Positions 30,389 to 37,102 of a DNA stretch of 64,000 bases are shown piece by piece (position 1 is the stretch's first letter; every line of letters begins with the position of its first letter). Both the position numbers and the translations under genes were made by a program. The notes under the pieces were generated by a model, which saw nothing but the letters and a program-made list of their open reading frames with translations, ran no database searches and had not been told where the DNA came from. The stretch comes from Thalassotalea marina (GTDB lineage Bacteria; Pseudomonadota; Gammaproteobacteria; Enterobacterales; Alteromonadaceae). The stretch spans positions 62,001-126,000 of the forward strand of contig NZ_BNCK01000003.1 of NCBI RefSeq assembly GCF_014656435.1. The letters run 5' to 3'.

Positions 30389-31243
30389 ATGACAGCAAAT
30401 AAAATAGTTCCAATATTAGCAGGCGGTGGCACTCGCTTACCTGCACACGTAGGCATATTACAAGCGCTAGACGAATACAACATTCCCTTCGACACTATAG
30501 TTGGTGTATCGGGAGGTAGTATTATAAGCAGCTTATTTGCTTCAGGCTTGTCATTAGCCGAAGTTAAACACATTGCCTTAAACACAGACTACTCTCAGTT
30601 TAGAGGGTTTTCTCTGGTCAAATTGATACGAAATGGCGGTTTAAGCTCTGGAGATGTGTTTGAACGATGGATAGATCGTTTATTAAATGGCAAAACCTTT
30701 AAAGAAATGAAATACGATTTACACGTCGTGGCAACTGACGTAGCACGAGGTAAACCTGTTATTTTTAACAAAGAAAAAACGCCAGACGTGAAAGTATCGC
30801 TTGCCGTTAGGTTTTCTATGTCTATTCCTTTAGTATTTAGCTTCAAAAAATTTGATGAACACCTGATGGTTGATGGCAGTATTTTGTCAGAAGATGCTTT
30901 ACATCGAGACTGGGCAAATGATGGCACTCCTGTTATTTGTTTTCGCCTAAAAGGTGACTATGAATATGACGATATTAAAATTAAAGGCTTATTCCCTATA
31001 GTGCAATATGTGAGCCTATTGATCAGAACTTTTATGACAACGATTTCACGGGAATATATCAACGAAGCGTTTTGGCACAATACCGTGGTAGTTAACACTG
31101 GAACATCTTCAGCAGTAGACTTCAATATGACTACAGAACAAAAAGAAGCTCTGTACTTTAAAGGCTATCATACGGCATTAAAAATACTGCCCATTAAAGT
31201 TAAAGCGCTTAATATTGATAATTTAGCCGCTAAAACGATGTGA
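30389..31243 (+). CDS. Patatin-like phospholipase
   Basis: A 284-residue lipid acyl hydrolase of the patatin family with an intact Ser-Asp dyad. The oxyanion-hole loop is AGGGTRLPAH (residues 11-20), the nucleophile Ser41 is in GVSGGS, and the catalytic Asp162 is in VDGS. There is no signal peptide, so it acts in the cytoplasm or at the inner membrane, as in the RssA/YchK-type subgroup. It precedes the ligase operon by 118 bases on the same strand and could supply or remove acyl chains for it, but co-transcription is unproven. Confidence 0.88.
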   Translation: MTANKIVPILAGGGTRLPAHVGILQALDEYNIPFDTIVGVSGGSIISSLFASGLSLAEVKHIALNTDYSQFRGFSLVKLIRNGGLSSGDVFERWIDRLLNGKTFKEMKYDLHVVATDVARGKPVIFNKEKTPDVKVSLAVRFSMSIPLVFSFKKFDEHLMVDGSILSEDALHRDWANDGTPVICFRLKGDYEYDDIKIKGLFPIVQYVSLLIRTFMTTISREYINEAFWHNTVVVNTGTSSAVDFNMTTEQKEALYFKGYHTALKILPIKVKALNIDNLAAKTM

Positions 31244-31361: not shown

Positions 31362-32966
31362 ATGATCAACCTCGTGCATCAGCTTATCGAAGATAGTGTT
31401 AAACACTACCCGGATAAATTGGCGCTTATAACTAATAAAAAGTCCACTACCTACCAAGAACTCAACACAAATGTTGAGCAAATAAGCAGAGGTTTGCAGC
31501 GCTACACTACCGGCCGTCACGCTCGCATTGGTATTTATCTACACAAAACCGAAGAAGCTGTTATTTCTATGCTGGGAACAAGTCGCTGTCAGCGAATATT
31601 TGTGCCTATTAATCCGATATTAAAGTCAGCTCAGGTATCACACATTATTAATGACTGTGATATTGAATTATTAATCACTAATAAAGCACGGTTAATGGCG
31701 CTAGAGACAATGTTGACTCAACTACCATCATTAAAGTTTATTATTTTAATCGATGATTTTGATAGCAAAATAGCATTACCAGCAAGTATTCAAATAGTAA
31801 CTTGGTCTTCGCTGCTAGTTGAACAAGGAAATAGTCCGTCAATCACATCAACAGGAAGTGATGTTGCTGCTATTTTTTATACCTCCGGTAGTACAGGAAA
31901 GCCTAAAGGTGTGGTGTTATCTCATCAAAACATCGTATTAGGTGCAAATTCTGTCGCAACCTACTTAAAAAATACAAGTGATGATACTATCCTCGCCGCA
32001 CTGCCCTTTAGTTTTGATTATGGTTTTAGCCAACTGACTACCAGCTTACTTGTTGGCGCTACCTGTGTGTTATTAGATTACTTATTACCTCGAGATGTGC
32101 TTAAAGCTATTGATAGCTACAAAATTACGGGGTTAGCCGCTGTTCCGCCATTGTGGGCGCAGCTTTGCAGTATTGACTGGAACAAATACGATGTCAGTAG
32201 CGTAAGGTATTTTACAAACAGTGGGGGTGTGTTAGCTCAAGCCAATCTCAATACCTTAAGACAGCACTTACCAAATGCCAAGCCCTATTTGATGTATGGC
32301 TTAACTGAAGCATTTCGCTCTACTTACCTTTGCCCTGAGCAGATTGATCATCGCCCAACCTCCATAGGTAAAGCCATCCCCAATGCGGAAATTCTTGTAC
32401 TCGATTCAAATGGCAACGAGTGCCCTGCAAATCAGCCTGGCGAATTAGTGCATTTGGGGCCATTGGTTTCTCTTGGTTATTGGAACGACATTAAACGCAC
32501 AGAAATAAGATTCAAACCAAGTCCGCTGCAACCCAGCGGTATACCAATTAATCAAAAGGCGGTTTGGTCAGGTGACTCTGTGTACAGAGACGAAGAAGGC
32601 TATTTGTATTTTGTCGCTAGGCAAGATGAAATGATTAAAACGTCAGGTTACCGTGTCAGCCCTGCTGAAATCGAAGAGTGCATATATCAACATCCAAACA
32701 TCGTCGAAGTAGCGGTAGTCGGCGCATACGATGCTGATTTAGGGCAGGCGATTTTGGTGTTAGTTTCAACAAATAATGAACAAAGCGTAGAATCGATTAG
32801 CAATAACATCACGCAGCTTTGTTTAAAAGAATTACCCAACTACATGAAGCCTAAACAAGTGCTTGTAGTTGATCAGCTTCCTAAAAATGCTAATGGGAAG
32901 ATTGATCGTAGTTTGTTAAACAGCAAATATAAAAACCATTTTTTGGATAAAGAAACGCATGATTAA
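31362..32966 (+). CDS. AMP-forming acyl/amino-acid ligase, exosortase-A-associated type
   Basis: A 534-residue member of the ANL adenylating superfamily. Motifs visible in order are the P-loop YTSGSTGKPKG (173-183), MYGLTEAFRS, WSGDSVYRDEEGYLYFVAR, the hinge DEMIKTSGYRVSP, and the C-terminal catalytic Lys513 (NANGKIDRS). It would activate a carboxylate as an acyl-adenylate and pass it to CoA or a carrier. From memory it most resembles the ligase family found beside exosortase A genes (TIGR03098-type), which is normally paired with a PLP decarboxylase, exactly as here. The natural substrate is unknown. Its stop codon overlaps the start of the next gene by eight bases. Confidence 0.82.
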   Translation: MINLVHQLIEDSVKHYPDKLALITNKKSTTYQELNTNVEQISRGLQRYTTGRHARIGIYLHKTEEAVISMLGTSRCQRIFVPINPILKSAQVSHIINDCDIELLITNKARLMALETMLTQLPSLKFIILIDDFDSKIALPASIQIVTWSSLLVEQGNSPSITSTGSDVAAIFYTSGSTGKPKGVVLSHQNIVLGANSVATYLKNTSDDTILAALPFSFDYGFSQLTTSLLVGATCVLLDYLLPRDVLKAIDSYKITGLAAVPPLWAQLCSIDWNKYDVSSVRYFTNSGGVLAQANLNTLRQHLPNAKPYLMYGLTEAFRSTYLCPEQIDHRPTSIGKAIPNAEILVLDSNGNECPANQPGELVHLGPLVSLGYWNDIKRTEIRFKPSPLQPSGIPINQKAVWSGDSVYRDEEGYLYFVARQDEMIKTSGYRVSPAEIEECIYQHPNIVEVAVVGAYDADLGQAILVLVSTNNEQSVESISNNITQLCLKELPNYMKPKQVLVVDQLPKNANGKIDRSLLNSKYKNHFLDKETHD

Positions 32967-34191
32967 TCATCACGAAAAACAAAATCACTTTGGCAGTCTC
33001 AACAACCAATTAATGGTGCAAGATAAAAACTTAACAGACATTGACGCGATCGTCGGGCAGACACCTTTTTACGTTTATGATTCCAGTATTGTTCAACAGC
33101 GCATAACAACACTGGTTGAGCAGTTGCCAAAACGCATCAATCTACATTATGCAATTAAAGCAAATCCTTATTTACCTTTGGTGCACTTTATAAAGCCTTT
33201 AGTTAAAGGGTTTGATGTTGCATCTAAAAAAGAAATGTTACTGGCATTAGAGTCAGGAATGCCAGCAAACCACATTAGCTTTGCGGGCCCTGGTAAATCT
33301 GATGGAGATTTAACAGCGGCAATATTAACAGGCGTTATTTTGCATGCAGAGTCGCTCAACGAAATAAAACGCGCTATCGCTATTGGCAAATCTGTCAACC
33401 GCAAGCCTAATATCGCTATTAGAGTCAATCCAGCATTTGAGTTAAAAGCTTCCGGCATGAAAATGGCGGGCGGTGCCAAGCCTTTTGGTGTTGATGAAGA
33501 GGTCGTGTTATCCGCTCTGCCTTCGCTCGACTATGAAAATATGACCTTCAAAGGTTTTCATATTTACGCAGGTTCACAAAATCTAGACGCAAACGCTATC
33601 ATCGACATGCATAATCAAACTTTTGAACTTGCCCTGAAGCTTGTTGATGCAACACCTGTCCCAATTTCACACATTAATTTAGGTGGTGGCTTTGGTGTTC
33701 CTTATTTTGCCAAAGAAAAAGCACTAAACATTGATCCAATCGCAAATAACTTACATAAATTATGTAACAATAGCGATAAATTGGCAGGCATAGATTTAAT
33801 TGTTGAATTAGGTAGATATTTGGTGGCAGAAGCTGGGCTTTATGTCTGCAAGGTCGTTGATAAGAAAGTCTCTCGTGACAAAACTTATTTAGTATGTGAC
33901 GGAGGCCTACATCATCATTTGGCTAATTCAGGTAATTTTGGGCAGGTGATCAGAAAAAACTACCCTCTTGCCATAGGTAATAAGCTAGTAGATACAGCTG
34001 AATCTCCTATGGAAAAAGTAGATATTGTGGGCCCACTTTGCACACCTTTAGATATCATAGGGCAAGCGGTTGAGCTACCCAAAGCTGATGTTGGCGACTA
34101 TATAGTAGTATTCCAATCAGGAGCTTATGGAGCTTCAGCTAGCCCAAAAGATTTTCTTAGCCAGCCACATTTAAGTGAAATATTATTTTAA
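32959..34191 (+). CDS. PLP-dependent decarboxylase (fold III), exosortase-A-associated type
   Basis: A 410-residue alanine-racemase-fold decarboxylase related to diaminopimelate and ornithine decarboxylases. PLP-binding Lys67 lies in LHYAIKANP. The glycine-rich phosphate loop LGGGFGVPY is in the middle. Cys361 in GPLCTPLD and the Tyr in SGAYGAS complete the active site across the dimer. It resembles the decarboxylase that accompanies the exosortase-A ligase (TIGR03099-type, from memory). The eight-base overlap with the ligase gene implies coupled translation and a shared pathway. The amino-acid substrate cannot be read from the sequence. Confidence 0.85.
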   Translation: MINHHEKQNHFGSLNNQLMVQDKNLTDIDAIVGQTPFYVYDSSIVQQRITTLVEQLPKRINLHYAIKANPYLPLVHFIKPLVKGFDVASKKEMLLALESGMPANHISFAGPGKSDGDLTAAILTGVILHAESLNEIKRAIAIGKSVNRKPNIAIRVNPAFELKASGMKMAGGAKPFGVDEEVVLSALPSLDYENMTFKGFHIYAGSQNLDANAIIDMHNQTFELALKLVDATPVPISHINLGGGFGVPYFAKEKALNIDPIANNLHKLCNNSDKLAGIDLIVELGRYLVAEAGLYVCKVVDKKVSRDKTYLVCDGGLHHHLANSGNFGQVIRKNYPLAIGNKLVDTAESPMEKVDIVGPLCTPLDIIGQAVELPKADVGDYIVVFQSGAYGASASPKDFLSQPHLSEILF

Positions 34192-34278
34192 CGAAAAATT
34201 AACATTGAAATAAGTAATGAAATTTCACCATATGCTGTTATATTTAATGATAGGTTTTACAAGGCGCAAATAAAAAAA

Positions 34279-35079
34279 ATGAGTGGATATTCAATAGCTA
34301 AGAATTTTGATCAATATTTTAGGATCAAATTCGCCAGTACCAAGGAGCTACAGCAGGAAGCTTACAAAATAAGGTACAGTGTTTATGCCGACGAACTCGG
34401 CTGGGAACCTAGCAACGACGATAAGATAGAAACCGACGAATGTGATGATTATGCGTATCACTGCTTGTTGGAGCATAGACGAACTGGTACCTATGCTGGC
34501 TGTATTCGTTTGATTATTCCACCTGGTGAAAACCCACAATATTTATTGCCATTTGAACAACACTGCATGGACAGCTTAAAGCGCGAAGTGTTAGATACCA
34601 ATACCTTACCGCGAGGTGGCTTTGGTGAAATCTCGCGACTTGCCGTACTTTCTTCGTTTAGACGACGTGAACAAGAAAAAAACAAACCTTATATCTTGGC
34701 TAATGTAAATCCAGATACCATGTATTCAGAGGAAGAGCGCCGAAACTTTCCTAATATTGCCATCGGCTTGTATTTAGGCGGCTTAGCGCTAGCAGCCATG
34801 TGCAATCACGTGGGTATAATGGTGATGATGGAGACTCGCCTAAACCGGAGACTACAACGATTCGGTCTTCCCTTTGACCAAATTGGTGAAGAAACTGATT
34901 ATCATGGGCGTCGTGCTATGTTTTATTTGCGCAAAGAAAATTTCTACCGAGAACTCAATGAACAAATGCGCGAACTTTATGACATCATAGAAAAAGAGCT
35001 ACTCACGCAAATTTCACTGCATGATTATAGTGCAGATAACACATTTAAAATTCCTGAAATTTATCGAAACCCTAAATAA
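34279..35079 (+). CDS. FeeM-like N-acyl amino acid synthase, PEP-CTERM/exosortase-associated type
   Basis: A 266-residue acyltransferase of the autoinducer-synthase/GNAT fold. The N-terminal IRYSVYADELGWE (31-43) matches the entry motif of this superfamily. GFGEISRLAVL (115-124) holds the conserved Glu117 and Arg120 near the catalytic centre. It belongs with the long-chain N-acyl amino acid synthases linked to PEP-CTERM/exosortase loci; those make N-acyl amino acids from acyl-ACP. No exosortase is visible here. It lies 87 bases after the decarboxylase and 12 bases before the ThiF gene. A LuxI-type homoserine lactone synthase is unlikely because the sequence lacks the LuxI C-terminal pattern and no LuxR is adjacent. 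Confidence 0.82.
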   Translation: MSGYSIAKNFDQYFRIKFASTKELQQEAYKIRYSVYADELGWEPSNDDKIETDECDDYAYHCLLEHRRTGTYAGCIRLIIPPGENPQYLLPFEQHCMDSLKREVLDTNTLPRGGFGEISRLAVLSSFRRREQEKNKPYILANVNPDTMYSEEERRNFPNIAIGLYLGGLALAAMCNHVGIMVMMETRLNRRLQRFGLPFDQIGEETDYHGRRAMFYLRKENFYRELNEQMRELYDIIEKELLTQISLHDYSADNTFKIPEIYRNPK

Positions 35080-35091
35080 TAAGGCTTATAC

Positions 35092-35952
35092 ATGTCACAT
35101 CAATTTGATTACGACCTGGCGTTTTCTCGTAATATTGGGTGGTTTACAGAAGAAGAACAACATCAACTTAAAAACAAATGTATTGCTATTGCTGGAATGG
35201 GCGGAGTTGGCGGAGATCATTTTTTAACGCTAGTAAGAATTGGCATTGGCAAATTTCACGTATCAGATTTTGACGAATTTGGCTGTGAAAACACAAATCG
35301 CCAAGTTGGTGCCAATATCAATACTTACGGTGCACCTAAGTTAGATACTATGGTGAAAATGGCATTGGACATTAATCCAGAGCTAGAAATTAAAACGTTT
35401 GAACAAGGTATTAACGAAGATAACATTCACGACTTTTTAGACGGCGTTGATTGTTATGTTGATTCGTTAGACTTTTTCGCTGTAGATGCTAGAAGACTGG
35501 TTTTTGATCAGTGTGCTAAAAAACAAATTCCTGCCACTACAGCTGCACCTATTGGTATGGGCACGGCTTATCTAAACTTTCTCCCCGGACAAATGACCTT
35601 TGAAGAATACTTTAGGTTAGAAGGTCACACAGAAAATGAACAATACTTAAAGTTTTTCCTTGGCTTAACTCCTGCTGCTTTACAAAGTAGCTATTTAGTT
35701 GACCCAACAAGGTTAGATCTTGCCAATAAAAAAGGCCCATCAACGTTTGTTGGCTGCCAATTAGCTGCAGGTGTTGCCGCAGCTCAAGTGGTGAAAATTT
35801 TTCTCAATCGTGGTGATGTATTAAACGTGCCTTGGGGTTTACATTTTGACGCCTATCGTAATAAATTCAAAAAAACTTGGCGTCCGGGTGGCAATAACAA
35901 CCCTATTCAAAAGTTGGCTTATCATATTGCTAAGCGCAAAATGGGAATTTGA
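35092..35952 (+). CDS. ThiF/MoeB/E1-like adenylyltransferase without zinc cysteines
   Basis: A 286-residue Rossmann protein of the E1-like activating family. The ATP-binding loop GMGGVGG is at 35-41. The motif SDFDEFGCENTNRQ (58-71) has the Asp, Asn, Arg and Gln residues that bind ATP and magnesium in MoeB and ThiF. The paired CxxC zinc motifs and the usual C-terminal catalytic Cys are absent. Such enzymes adenylate a carboxyl terminus; here the acceptor could be a small molecule or a peptide. From memory, ThiF and nitroreductase domains are fused in mycobacterial MoeY/Rv1355c-like proteins; here the equivalent genes are adjacent but separate. Confidence 0.8.
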   Translation: MSHQFDYDLAFSRNIGWFTEEEQHQLKNKCIAIAGMGGVGGDHFLTLVRIGIGKFHVSDFDEFGCENTNRQVGANINTYGAPKLDTMVKMALDINPELEIKTFEQGINEDNIHDFLDGVDCYVDSLDFFAVDARRLVFDQCAKKQIPATTAAPIGMGTAYLNFLPGQMTFEEYFRLEGHTENEQYLKFFLGLTPAALQSSYLVDPTRLDLANKKGPSTFVGCQLAAGVAAAQVVKIFLNRGDVLNVPWGLHFDAYRNKFKKTWRPGGNNNPIQKLAYHIAKRKMGI

Positions 35953-35981
35953 TTTAAATCTTTTAGTTAGGATGTTTAGCT

Positions 35982-37043
35982 ATGCTAAGTCAACAAGACG
36001 TAAATGCCATTATTGAAGCGGCGATTTTTGCTCCATCAGCCGACAATAGTTTACCTTTTTTATTTGATTACGATGGTCAAAACACAATAAAGTTTTTTAC
36101 CGATGAAACACGTTCGGGAAAAGCGACAGATCAAGGTTTTGCATTATCTGATATAGCACTCGGTGCAGTGCTTGAAAATGCGATTATTAAAGGTAGCTCG
36201 TTAGGTTATGACTGTGATATTCAATATTTTCCTGATATCGAACATCAACCTAGACATATAGCAAACGTCACTTTTACCAAAGCCGCAACACCCATTCAGC
36301 CAAACCCGCTTGTTCAAGCAATTACTGAGCGCTGTACCGATCGTAGGTTTCCTTTTAAAGGCCCAGTTCAACAAGAGGTAATAACTCGCTTACAACAAGC
36401 TGCCGAGTTTCATCAATGTGAGCTTGCCATTTATGACAACAAGGCAAGTAAACAAAAGGTGTTGCCTGTCATTCAAAAAGCGGAAACCATCCGCTTTGAG
36501 AGCCAGTTACTTCATCAAGAGCTATTTTCAACAGTCGACTTTGAAAATCCAACACCCGCCGAAGGTATGCCAGTATCAACCTTAGCCATTGAAGCGCCAG
36601 CCAGACCATTTTTTAAGTTAATGTCTAAATGGAAATATATGAACTTCTTTAATAAATTAGGCGGTTCAAAAATGTTAGGCTTGCGCTCGGTTAAAGTACC
36701 AATTGCATTCTCACCGTTACTTGTATTATTAAAAATTCCAAGTAATAGCCGTCGTGATGTAATTCGTGGTGGGCAAGCGCTTCAGCGTATTTGGTTACAA
36801 GCAGCTGCAGATAAGCTAGCGGTGCAACCTTATGCTGCTCCGGGCGTATTTTCATTAGGGCATTTACAAATTGAAGAGCCCTTGATGCCAAGATTAGCAG
36901 CGGTTCAACAGGAGATGGCAAACATTGTAGAAAACAAAGGTTATGGCTTAATGTTTTTGCGCATGGGCTATAATTCACCAGTGACTAATCGTACCTTACG
37001 CAGACCACTCGAAAGTTATCGAATGACGCAAAGTAACAGCTAA
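35982..37043 (+). CDS. Nitroreductase-like flavoprotein
   Basis: A 353-residue protein with nitroreductase-family features: the N-terminal FMN-binding segment IIEAAIFAPSADNS, RCTDRRFPFKGP near one-third, and a C-terminal region with GYGLMFLRMGYNS. FMN-dependent reduction or dehydrogenation is the family chemistry; in azole-forming peptide pathways, related domains oxidise azolines made by a ThiF-like partner. It is 29 bases after the ThiF gene and is the last gene of the operon, 30 bases before a strong terminator. Its substrate is unknown. Confidence 0.75.
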   Translation: MLSQQDVNAIIEAAIFAPSADNSLPFLFDYDGQNTIKFFTDETRSGKATDQGFALSDIALGAVLENAIIKGSSLGYDCDIQYFPDIEHQPRHIANVTFTKAATPIQPNPLVQAITERCTDRRFPFKGPVQQEVITRLQQAAEFHQCELAIYDNKASKQKVLPVIQKAETIRFESQLLHQELFSTVDFENPTPAEGMPVSTLAIEAPARPFFKLMSKWKYMNFFNKLGGSKMLGLRSVKVPIAFSPLLVLLKIPSNSRRDVIRGGQALQRIWLQAAADKLAVQPYAAPGVFSLGHLQIEEPLMPRLAAVQQEMANIVENKGYGLMFLRMGYNSPVTNRTLRRPLESYRMTQSNS

Positions 37044-37073
37044 CAATTGAATTACAACTTTATACTTCCAAAG

Positions 37074-37102
37074 AAAAAGGTAGCTTATGAGCTACCTTTT
37101 TT
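37074..37102. terminator. Bidirectional terminator between the ligase operon and trpS
   Basis: A perfect 12-base-pair stem (AAAAAGGTAGCT/AGCTACCTTTTT) with loop TATG is flanked by A and T tracts. It works in both directions and serves the nitroreductase-like gene on the plus strand and trpS on the minus strand. Confidence 0.9.

What the first reader, a model, noticed from the sequence alone, without database searches (positions are those of the whole stretch)
31362..37102. Compact five-gene operon: ligase, PLP decarboxylase, FeeM-like N-acyltransferase, ThiF-like enzyme, nitroreductase-like enzyme
Seen: five co-directional genes with an eight-base overlap and gaps of 87, 12 and 29 bases, closed by a perfect bidirectional terminator, inserted between the conserved yibQ and trpS blocks. 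Known: the ligase and decarboxylase resemble the exosortase-A-associated pair (TIGR03098/TIGR03099-type), and the acyltransferase resembles PEP-CTERM-linked N-acyl amino acid synthases. Inferred: the biosynthetic half of a PEP-CTERM-type locus appears here without exosortase or sorted substrate, and with ThiF and nitroreductase chemistry added. The likely product is a modified N-acyl amino acid or N-acyl amine, possibly a lipid signal or surface lipid, which I do not know to be described.
Basis: partly seen in the sequence, partly recalled or inferred. Interest (0 to 1): 0.85.

Follow-up and report, generated by a model that had tools for sequence, protein, structure and literature searches.

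The report
Acyl-tyrosine operon with displaced exosortase genes
A marine bacterium carries a compact operon whose last three genes match a known recipe for fatty-acyl dehydro-amino acids and whose first two belong to a protein-sorting and surface-polysaccharide system encoded elsewhere in its genome; most parts are known, but their close tie to that sorting system is a testable lead.

Summary
In detail: five co-directional genes with the stated spacing and terminator. [quoted passage not shown] The reading changes. (1) The same order occurs in Thalassotalea sp. PP2-459, whose synthase-ThiF-nitroreductase trio was proposed in 2025 as the thalassotalic-acid cluster, so that half is described. 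(2) The genome does have exosortase A with PrsT, PrsK/PrsR, a hydrolase and a carrier protein on contig 7, and PEP-CTERM proteins; ligase and decarboxylase are displaced parts. (3) The decarboxylase is closest to BtrK, which acts on an aminoacyl carrier protein. Apparently new: in 246 family genomes ThiF never occurs without an exosortase (107 of 107, against 69 of 139 lacking ThiF), and ligase and ThiF, when both present, lie within 20 kb in 27 of 30. Likely product: a surface N-acyl dehydro-aromatic amino acid or oxazolone, plus a decarboxylated aminoacyl group, serving the exosortase/exopolysaccharide system. No product has been measured.

The parts
30389..31243 (+). patatin-like acyl hydrolase, probable sixth (first) gene of the unit
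   Evidence: Pfam Patatin 1.1e-29; homologue within 5 kb of ThiF in 29 of 55 loci; directly upstream of ligase in L071-L073, L075-L079, L090, L104
31362..32966 (+). amino-acid-type adenylation enzyme (ligase_PEP_1)
   Evidence: TIGR03098 723.4 bits, cut-off 592.35; best PDB hits are NRPS adenylation domains; D219 aligned with the FSFD aspartate of LgrA and present in 28 of 28 aligned homologues
32959..34191 (+). fold-type III PLP decarboxylase, probably on an aminoacyl-ACP
   Evidence: TIGR03099 573 bits, cut-off 478.45; best PDB hit BtrK 7ru7 E 4.5e-73 with shared GPLCTP-D motif
34279..35079 (+). N-acyl amino acid synthase (AHL-synthase/FeeM fold)
   Evidence: TIGR03694 269 bits, cut-off 111.95; AlphaFold pLDDT 85, Foldseek hits TofI, LasI, FeeM 2g0b
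35092..35952 (+). ThiF-like adenylating cyclase
   Evidence: NF006077 410.3 bits, cut-off 266; GxGGVG, R70, K83 and D127 kept in at least 49 of 50 aligned homologues; D127 aligned with the DCTDN aspartate of E. coli ThiF
35982..37043 (+). flavin-dependent oxidase of the nitroreductase superfamily (Acg-like)
   Evidence: NF005901 (Rv1355c family) E 1.2e-42, below cut-off; model matches Acg 2ymv
37074..37101 (.). bidirectional intrinsic terminator
   Evidence: 12-base arms, loop TATG, A and T runs; z -5.09

Best explanation
This is the Thalassotalea thalassotalic-acid-type cassette joined to two displaced accessory genes of the exosortase A system. Inferred chemistry: the synthase (P3) puts a fatty acyl chain on an aromatic amino acid (Tyr or Phe); the flavin oxidase (P5) uses O2 to desaturate it to the 2,3-dehydro form and the ThiF enzyme (P4) adenylates the carboxylate so that it closes to an oxazolone, which can stay closed or open to the free N-acyl dehydro-amino acid. 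Alongside, the ligase (P1) adenylates an amino acid and loads it on the carrier protein encoded at the exosortase locus (C7:57425-57673), and the decarboxylase (P2) removes its carboxylate as BtrK does, leaving an amine-bearing acyl group on the carrier. Both outputs serve the exosortase/PEP-CTERM/exopolysaccharide surface system. Shown here: gene identity, folds, conserved residues, synteny with the known producer, exosortase and carrier protein elsewhere in the genome, and statistical linkage. Inferred: every substrate, product and biological role.
For: (families, motifs, folds). Thalassotalea sp. PP2-459 (L154; contig length equals that of G283:C34, fetched as L072) has patatin-ligase-decarboxylase-synthase-ThiF-nitroreductase-trpS in the same order; the window synthase, ThiF and nitroreductase are sister to that group (support 98-100/99); exosortase A, PEP-CTERM proteins, carrier protein, hydrolase 1, PrsT, PrsK, PrsR. 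ThiF with exosortase in 107 of 107 family genomes, against 69 of 139 without ThiF (Fisher 1.7e-22; genus level 6.6e-6); order sample 29 of 29 over-cut-off ThiF genomes; ligase within 20 kb and same strand as ThiF in 27 of 30; in 55 ThiF loci, synthase within 3 kb in 49, PrsT within 10 kb in 45; in 71 named loci, nitroreductase within 3 kb or fused in 64, PrsT within 10 kb in 50. Literature: PMC10404671, PMC12856293, PMC12479983; a disrupted exosortase-linked synthase in Methylomonas LW13 no longer gave the distinct polysaccharide band, restored by complementation, though the mutant also failed to grow in that device (PMC11072679, passages).
Against: No product is measured. In Stieleria neptunia deleting the clustered synthase gene did not lower stieleriacine; an unlinked copy did, so clustering alone does not prove the pathway. 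37 of 55 ThiF loci show no nitroreductase within 3 kb, so the desaturation step is not general. The operon is far from exosortase A (ligase 129-135 kb away in three congeners, other contig here). It has no sigma-54-like promoter such as those before PEP-CTERM genes. The window ligase and decarboxylase do not group with the congeners' copies. Ligase does not need an exosortase: in the order sample only 10 of 24 genomes with an over-cut-off ligase have an exosortase hit, the 14 others being mostly one genus of family f7; in the family sample 58 of 61 do. Presence of ligase and of ThiF are not associated as such (30 of 61 against 77 of 185, p 0.37).
Confidence: 0.66

Rival explanations
1. A stand-alone secondary-metabolite cluster with no exosortase role: all five genes make one diffusible compound (an N-acyl dehydrotyrosine or a derived amide/amine), and the exosortase link is historical.
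For: In this genus the operon is far from exosortase A, lacks a sigma-54-like promoter, and PP2-459 is a producer of thalassotalic acids (PMC12479983). Four Pseudoalteromonas loci (L161, L162, L166, L220) carry synthase + fused ThiF-nitroreductase with no PrsT in the stretch held. Ligase occurs without exosortase in 14 of 24 genomes of the order sample.
Against: ThiF occurs with an exosortase in 107 of 107 family genomes; in the family, ligase co-occurs with exosortase A over cut-off in 57 of 61; the carrier protein stays at the exosortase locus.
Confidence: 0.2
2. Two pairs of independent function share one operon: ligase/decarboxylase make an exopolysaccharide substituent or other aminoacyl group and the trio makes a lipid, without chemical contact. 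This overlaps with the best explanation and differs from the novel case.
For: The two halves have different tree histories; ligase-decarboxylase-synthase occurs without ThiF in the stretches of G134, G316, G354, G389 and G404.
Against: Linkage within 20 kb on the same strand in 27 of 30 genomes with both; by arithmetic, two random genes in a 4 Mb genome lie that close about 1% of the time.
Confidence: 0.35
3. Ordinary primary metabolism: acyl-CoA ligase, diaminopimelate decarboxylase and sulfur-carrier adenylyltransferase.
For: Superfamily similarity to fatty acyl-CoA ligase, LysA and ThiF/MoeB models.
Against: The models of that kind listed are below their cut-offs, while the exosortase-associated models are exceeded.
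Confidence: 0.02

Closest known systems
Thalassotalic-acid cluster of Thalassotalea sp. PP2-459 (PMC12479983)
   Same: Same genus; same gene order; ThiF 88%, synthase 78%, nitroreductase 55% identity (L072).
   Different: The paper's main text has 0 occurrences of ligase, decarboxylase and exosortase; window ligase and decarboxylase are only 54% and 59% identical to its copies.
Oxazolone synthetases OxzAB and TyzABC/TrzAS
   Same: Synthase + ThiF cyclase + flavin oxidase; ThiF adenylation aspartate kept.
   Different: OxzB and TrzS are fusions, here the two are separate genes; the 2025 paper says no oxazolone was observed for the thalassotalic, kyonggic and stieleriacine families.
Exosortase A accessory ligase and decarboxylase, TIGR03098/TIGR03099
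   Same: Both over cut-off; exosortase A present in the genome.
   Different: Displaced from the exosortase locus; the carrier protein stays there.
BtrK/BtrI and VinN/VinO aminoacyl-ACP decarboxylation (VinN and VinO recalled)
   Same: BtrK is the best PDB match of the decarboxylase; the ligase resembles amino-acid adenylation enzymes, beta-aminoacyl-ACP synthetases among them.
   Different: Substrate unknown; carrier protein encoded elsewhere.
N-acyl amino acid synthases linked to PEP-CTERM/exosortase (Craig 2011, seen only as cited)
   Same: The synthase here is of TIGR03694, the exosortase-associated family.
   Different: The passages I saw do not mention ThiF, ligase or decarboxylase.

Membership tests
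N-acyl dehydro-amino acid / oxazolone cassette (OxzAB, TyzABC type) | co-located N-acyl amino acid synthase, ThiF protein and nitroreductase-type oxidase | tested here: met
N-acyl dehydro-amino acid / oxazolone cassette (OxzAB, TyzABC type) | ThiF adenylation motif and aspartate | tested here: met
   GxGGVG and D127 in at least 49 of 50 homologues; aligned to E. coli ThiF
N-acyl dehydro-amino acid / oxazolone cassette (OxzAB, TyzABC type) | product is an oxazolone or N-acyl dehydro-amino acid | not testable with these tools
   needs LC-MS
Thalassotalic-acid cluster | orthologous and syntenic with PP2-459 | tested here: met
   for synthase, ThiF and nitroreductase; ligase and decarboxylase do not group with the PP2-459 copies
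Exosortase A accessory genes | ligase and decarboxylase over TIGR03098/TIGR03099 cut-offs | tested here: met
Exosortase A accessory genes | exosortase A in the same genome | tested here: met
   334.5 bits at C7:85836-86609
Complete exosortase locus at this site | exosortase and PrsT nearby | tested here: not met
   only genome match of exosortase is on contig 7; no exosortase, PrsT or carrier-protein hit in the window
PrsK/PrsR sigma-54 regulon | -24/-12 promoter upstream | tested here: not met
   no site of 9 or more of 11 within 300 bases upstream of any of the six genes; 8 of 11 at best
BtrK-type aminoacyl-ACP decarboxylase | acts on an amino acid bound to a carrier protein | not testable with these tools
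   sequence similarity only; carrier homologue at C7

The most novel reading that the evidence does not exclude
The two halves meet chemically: the ThiF enzyme makes an activated oxazolone of an N-acyl aromatic amino acid, and the amine of the decarboxylated aminoacyl-carrier protein opens it, giving a lipid-amide that decorates the exopolysaccharide or serves as the amine-bearing lipid acceptor to which exosortase attaches PEP-CTERM proteins, a bacterial counterpart of archaetidylethanolamine as proposed for archaeosortase anchoring (PMC7157517, passages). That would give ThiF its missing role and name the exosortase acceptor.
Probability: 0.1. Interest if true: 0.88.

Novelty: new variant of a known kind. 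Interest (0 to 1): 0.5.

Why it matters
The role of the ThiF protein in N-acyl dehydrotyrosine producers is called enigmatic in the 2025 paper, and what exosortase attaches PEP-CTERM proteins to is, as far as I recall, open (no search of mine was aimed at that). That this ThiF family is not found without an exosortase in the 246 family genomes sampled, and that an aminoacyl ligase and an ACP-type decarboxylase often travel with it, makes both questions testable in one small operon of a culturable genus. The link of synthases to exosortase is itself published (Craig 2011, as cited in PMC4897644, PMC7293339 and PMC11072679), so the new part is ThiF, ligase and decarboxylase.

Tried and rejected
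Rejected: ordinary primary-metabolism enzymes; exosortase-less genome; control by the PrsR/sigma-54 regulon (three PEP-CTERM genes on C7 have such sites, this operon does not); general conservation of the five-gene order (5 contiguous cases found among 246 family genomes: G000, G252, G283, G311, G258; in G335 the nitroreductase is 4 kb off on the other strand).

Led nowhere: promoter and terminator scan (counts at chance level); whether ligase and decarboxylase of the window came by transfer (long branches, unresolved); ligase function from f7 loci without exosortase (L091-L093; the neighbour of L091 is PlsB, those of L092 and L093 were not profiled).

Counting limits. Synthase counts (27 of 71 within 3 kb) are too low, because my profile misses the divergent Massilia synthases, one of which matches the N-terminal part of PRK14852. 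My ThiF profile also scores stand-alone nitroreductases, since fusions entered it; the best-scoring hit was taken as ThiF anchor, and nitroreductase counts use the other profile, which may miss divergent ones. The 55 loci are 52 of the family and 3 of other families (L098, L099, L105), one per genome, the window not included; they are not a random sample: the first batch was picked because ligase and ThiF were near each other, the second roughly one per genus. Dropped there: loci under 10 kb, and L106, whose stretch missed ThiF. One search did not list all exosortase places. Order and family samples share 14 genomes. The 57 of 61 given to one search was counted by eye.

Papers: PMC12479983 (abstract, passages, sections on comparative genomics and on deletion mutants); PMC10404671 (abstract, section on TyzABC, discussion, passages); PMC12856293, PMC9850573, PMC4897644, PMC7293339, PMC11072679 (passages only); PMC7157517 (abstract, outline, passages); PMC8776678 and PMC7962754 (search listing only). 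Craig 2011, Haft 2006, de Rond 2021 and Deering 2016: not read, cited through others or recalled.
Full report
Observation. A patatin-like gene 118 bases upstream on the same strand (30389-31243) belongs to the recurrent neighbourhood, so the unit may be six genes.

What the proteins are. P1 matches ligase_PEP_1 (TIGR03098, 723.4 bits, cut-off 592.35) and P2 dCO2ase_PEP1 (TIGR03099, 573, cut-off 478.45). P1's best solved relatives are NRPS adenylation domains, with beta-aminoacyl-ACP synthetases also listed; the aspartate D219 that aligns with the FSFD aspartate of LgrA is present in 28 of 28 aligned homologues. That this position binds the substrate amino group in amino-acid adenylation enzymes is recalled; it fits amino-acid rather than fatty-acid activation. 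P2's best PDB match is BtrK, L-glutamyl-[ACP] decarboxylase (E 4.5e-73), sharing the GPLCTP-D motif. [quoted passage not shown] its model resembles AHL synthases and FeeM. P4 is NF006077, a ThiF protein with its adenylation residues kept. P5 is a flavin oxidase of the nitroreductase superfamily, closest in fold to Acg; it meets no NCBIfam cut-off, so its subfamily is open.

Known chemistry. Synthase + ThiF + nitroreductase make acyl-oxazolones: OxzAB of Pseudoalteromonas rubra (as cited), TyzABC and TrzAS of mycobacteria (PMC10404671, PMC12856293). [quoted passage not shown] The genome scan with P4 returned Thalassotalea sp. PP2-459 itself (L154), and its locus has patatin, ligase, decarboxylase, synthase, ThiF, nitroreductase and trpS in the same order (the contig length equals that of G283:C34, fetched as L072). 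Synthase, ThiF and nitroreductase of the window are sister to that group (support 98-100/99); ligase and decarboxylase are not, and sit on long branches.

Is there an exosortase? Not in the window, but in the genome: XrtA lies at C7:85836-86609 (334.5 bits, cut-off 208). On the same contig are PrsT (589.8 bits), PrsK, PrsR, hydrolase 1 (282.6, cut-off 168.45), a hydrolase-2-like protein (114.3, below its cut-off of 202.75) and a carrier protein at C7:57425-57673 with a DSM motif. 18 PEP-CTERM motif matches pass the cut-off over several contigs, four of them in a row at C7:41911-45104; the motif also passes its cut-off in 2 of 14 control genomes, so single hits are weak. No ligase or decarboxylase was seen among the ORFs of the stretches that cover C7:46100-124900, and the genome has one TIGR03098 hit and one TIGR03099 hit over cut-off, both in the window.

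How general is the link? In 246 genomes of the family, ThiF (NF006077) is in 107 and an exosortase hit (TIGR03109, E <= 1e-25) in 176; 107 of 107 ThiF genomes have it, against 69 of 139 others (Fisher 1.7e-22). By genus, all 35 ThiF genera are among the 43 exosortase genera of 52 (6.6e-6). In the order sample 29 of 29 ThiF genomes over cut-off have an exosortase (58 of 197 overall); the two ThiF hits below cut-off, G087 and G103, do not. In 55 ThiF loci of at least 10 kb (52 of the family, 3 of others, not a random sample) the synthase lies within 3 kb in 49, PrsT within 10 kb in 45, patatin within 5 kb in 29 and the nitroreductase within 3 kb in only 18. In 71 named loci, mostly Beta- and Gammaproteobacteria by their titles, the nitroreductase is within 3 kb or fused in 64 and PrsT within 10 kb in 50; one Massilia PrsT was checked at 885.1 bits.

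Ligase. In the family sample ligase occurs in 61 genomes at E <= 1e-140 (60 over cut-off); 58 of 61 have an exosortase hit and 57 of 61 exosortase A over cut-off, against 72 of 185 without ligase. Where ligase and ThiF co-occur (30 genomes) they are within 20 kb on the same strand in 27. In 6 of the 10 loci L080-L089 a carrier protein stands beside the ligase, and PrsT and PEP-CTERM-type proteins lie between ligase and ThiF in several. But presence of ligase and of ThiF are not associated as such (30 of 61 against 77 of 185; p 0.37), and in the order sample only 10 of 24 genomes with an over-cut-off ligase have an exosortase hit; 12 of the 14 others are one genus of family f7.

Against the link. 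The ligase is 129-135 kb from exosortase A in three congeners and on another contig here. The operon lacks the sigma-54-like sites found 81-84 bases before three PEP-CTERM genes of this genome (10 of 11 matches; background 6 such sites in 325,610 nt), though in Aquincola RpoN dependence was shown for pepA and not for prsT (PMC9850573). Congener G214 has synthase and ThiF with PrsT beside a different exosortase (177.7 bits, below the XrtA cut-off) and lacks ligase and decarboxylase; no nitroreductase shows in its 20 kb stretch.

Site. In L095 and L097 (related genera) the gene clusters c12-c11-c10-c6-patatin that also flank the window operon are followed directly by synthase-ThiF-PrsT; in L095 an exosortase follows at once, in L097 it lies about 11 kb from ThiF. 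The window operon thus sits where these relatives keep an exosortase locus, which suggests, but does not prove, a partial locus at an old site.

Verdict. The acyl-amino-acid half is a known cassette and the ligase/decarboxylase half belongs to an exosortase system present in the same genome. Beyond the published synthase-exosortase link (Craig 2011, seen only as cited), the points that appear new are the co-occurrence of this ThiF family with exosortases, the linkage of a BtrK-like decarboxylase and aminoacyl ligase to it, and their union in one operon in a thalassotalic-acid genus. Literature searches for these points returned 0, 1, 1 and 1 paper; the two papers behind those hits were seen as listings only and look unrelated by title. 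Subscription journals are mostly not held, so this is weak evidence of absence.

Noticed in passing
G000 C7:43021-45104 (L110-L112): Tandem, nearly identical PEP-CTERM genes of 241 aa; three examined each have a sigma-54-like -24/-12 site (10 of 11) 81-84 bases upstream.
   Followed up: partly
L074, L095, L096, L148: A second exosortase type (178-183 bits to XrtA, below cut-off; the L095 protein is over the TIGR02602 cut-off) at the end of a run synthase-ThiF-PrsT-exosortase without nitroreductase (one gene between synthase and ThiF in L074).
   Followed up: partly
window 31362-34191: Ligase and decarboxylase are only 54% and 59% identical to the PP2-459 copies while ThiF is 88% and patatin 87%; different history or fast change, unresolved.
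   Followed up: partly
L091-L093: Ligase-decarboxylase pair in family f7 genomes without an exosortase hit, followed in L091 by plsB; L092 and L093 have a gene of similar length there, not profiled.
   Followed up: partly
L102, L103: Ligase-decarboxylase near a carrier protein and an ABC transporter (MsbA by profile in L102, not profiled in L103) in two genomes without an exosortase hit.
   Followed up: no
55 ThiF loci: 37 of 55 show no nitroreductase within 3 kb, so ThiF without an adjacent desaturase is common in this family; divergent ones could be missed by my profile.
   Followed up: partly
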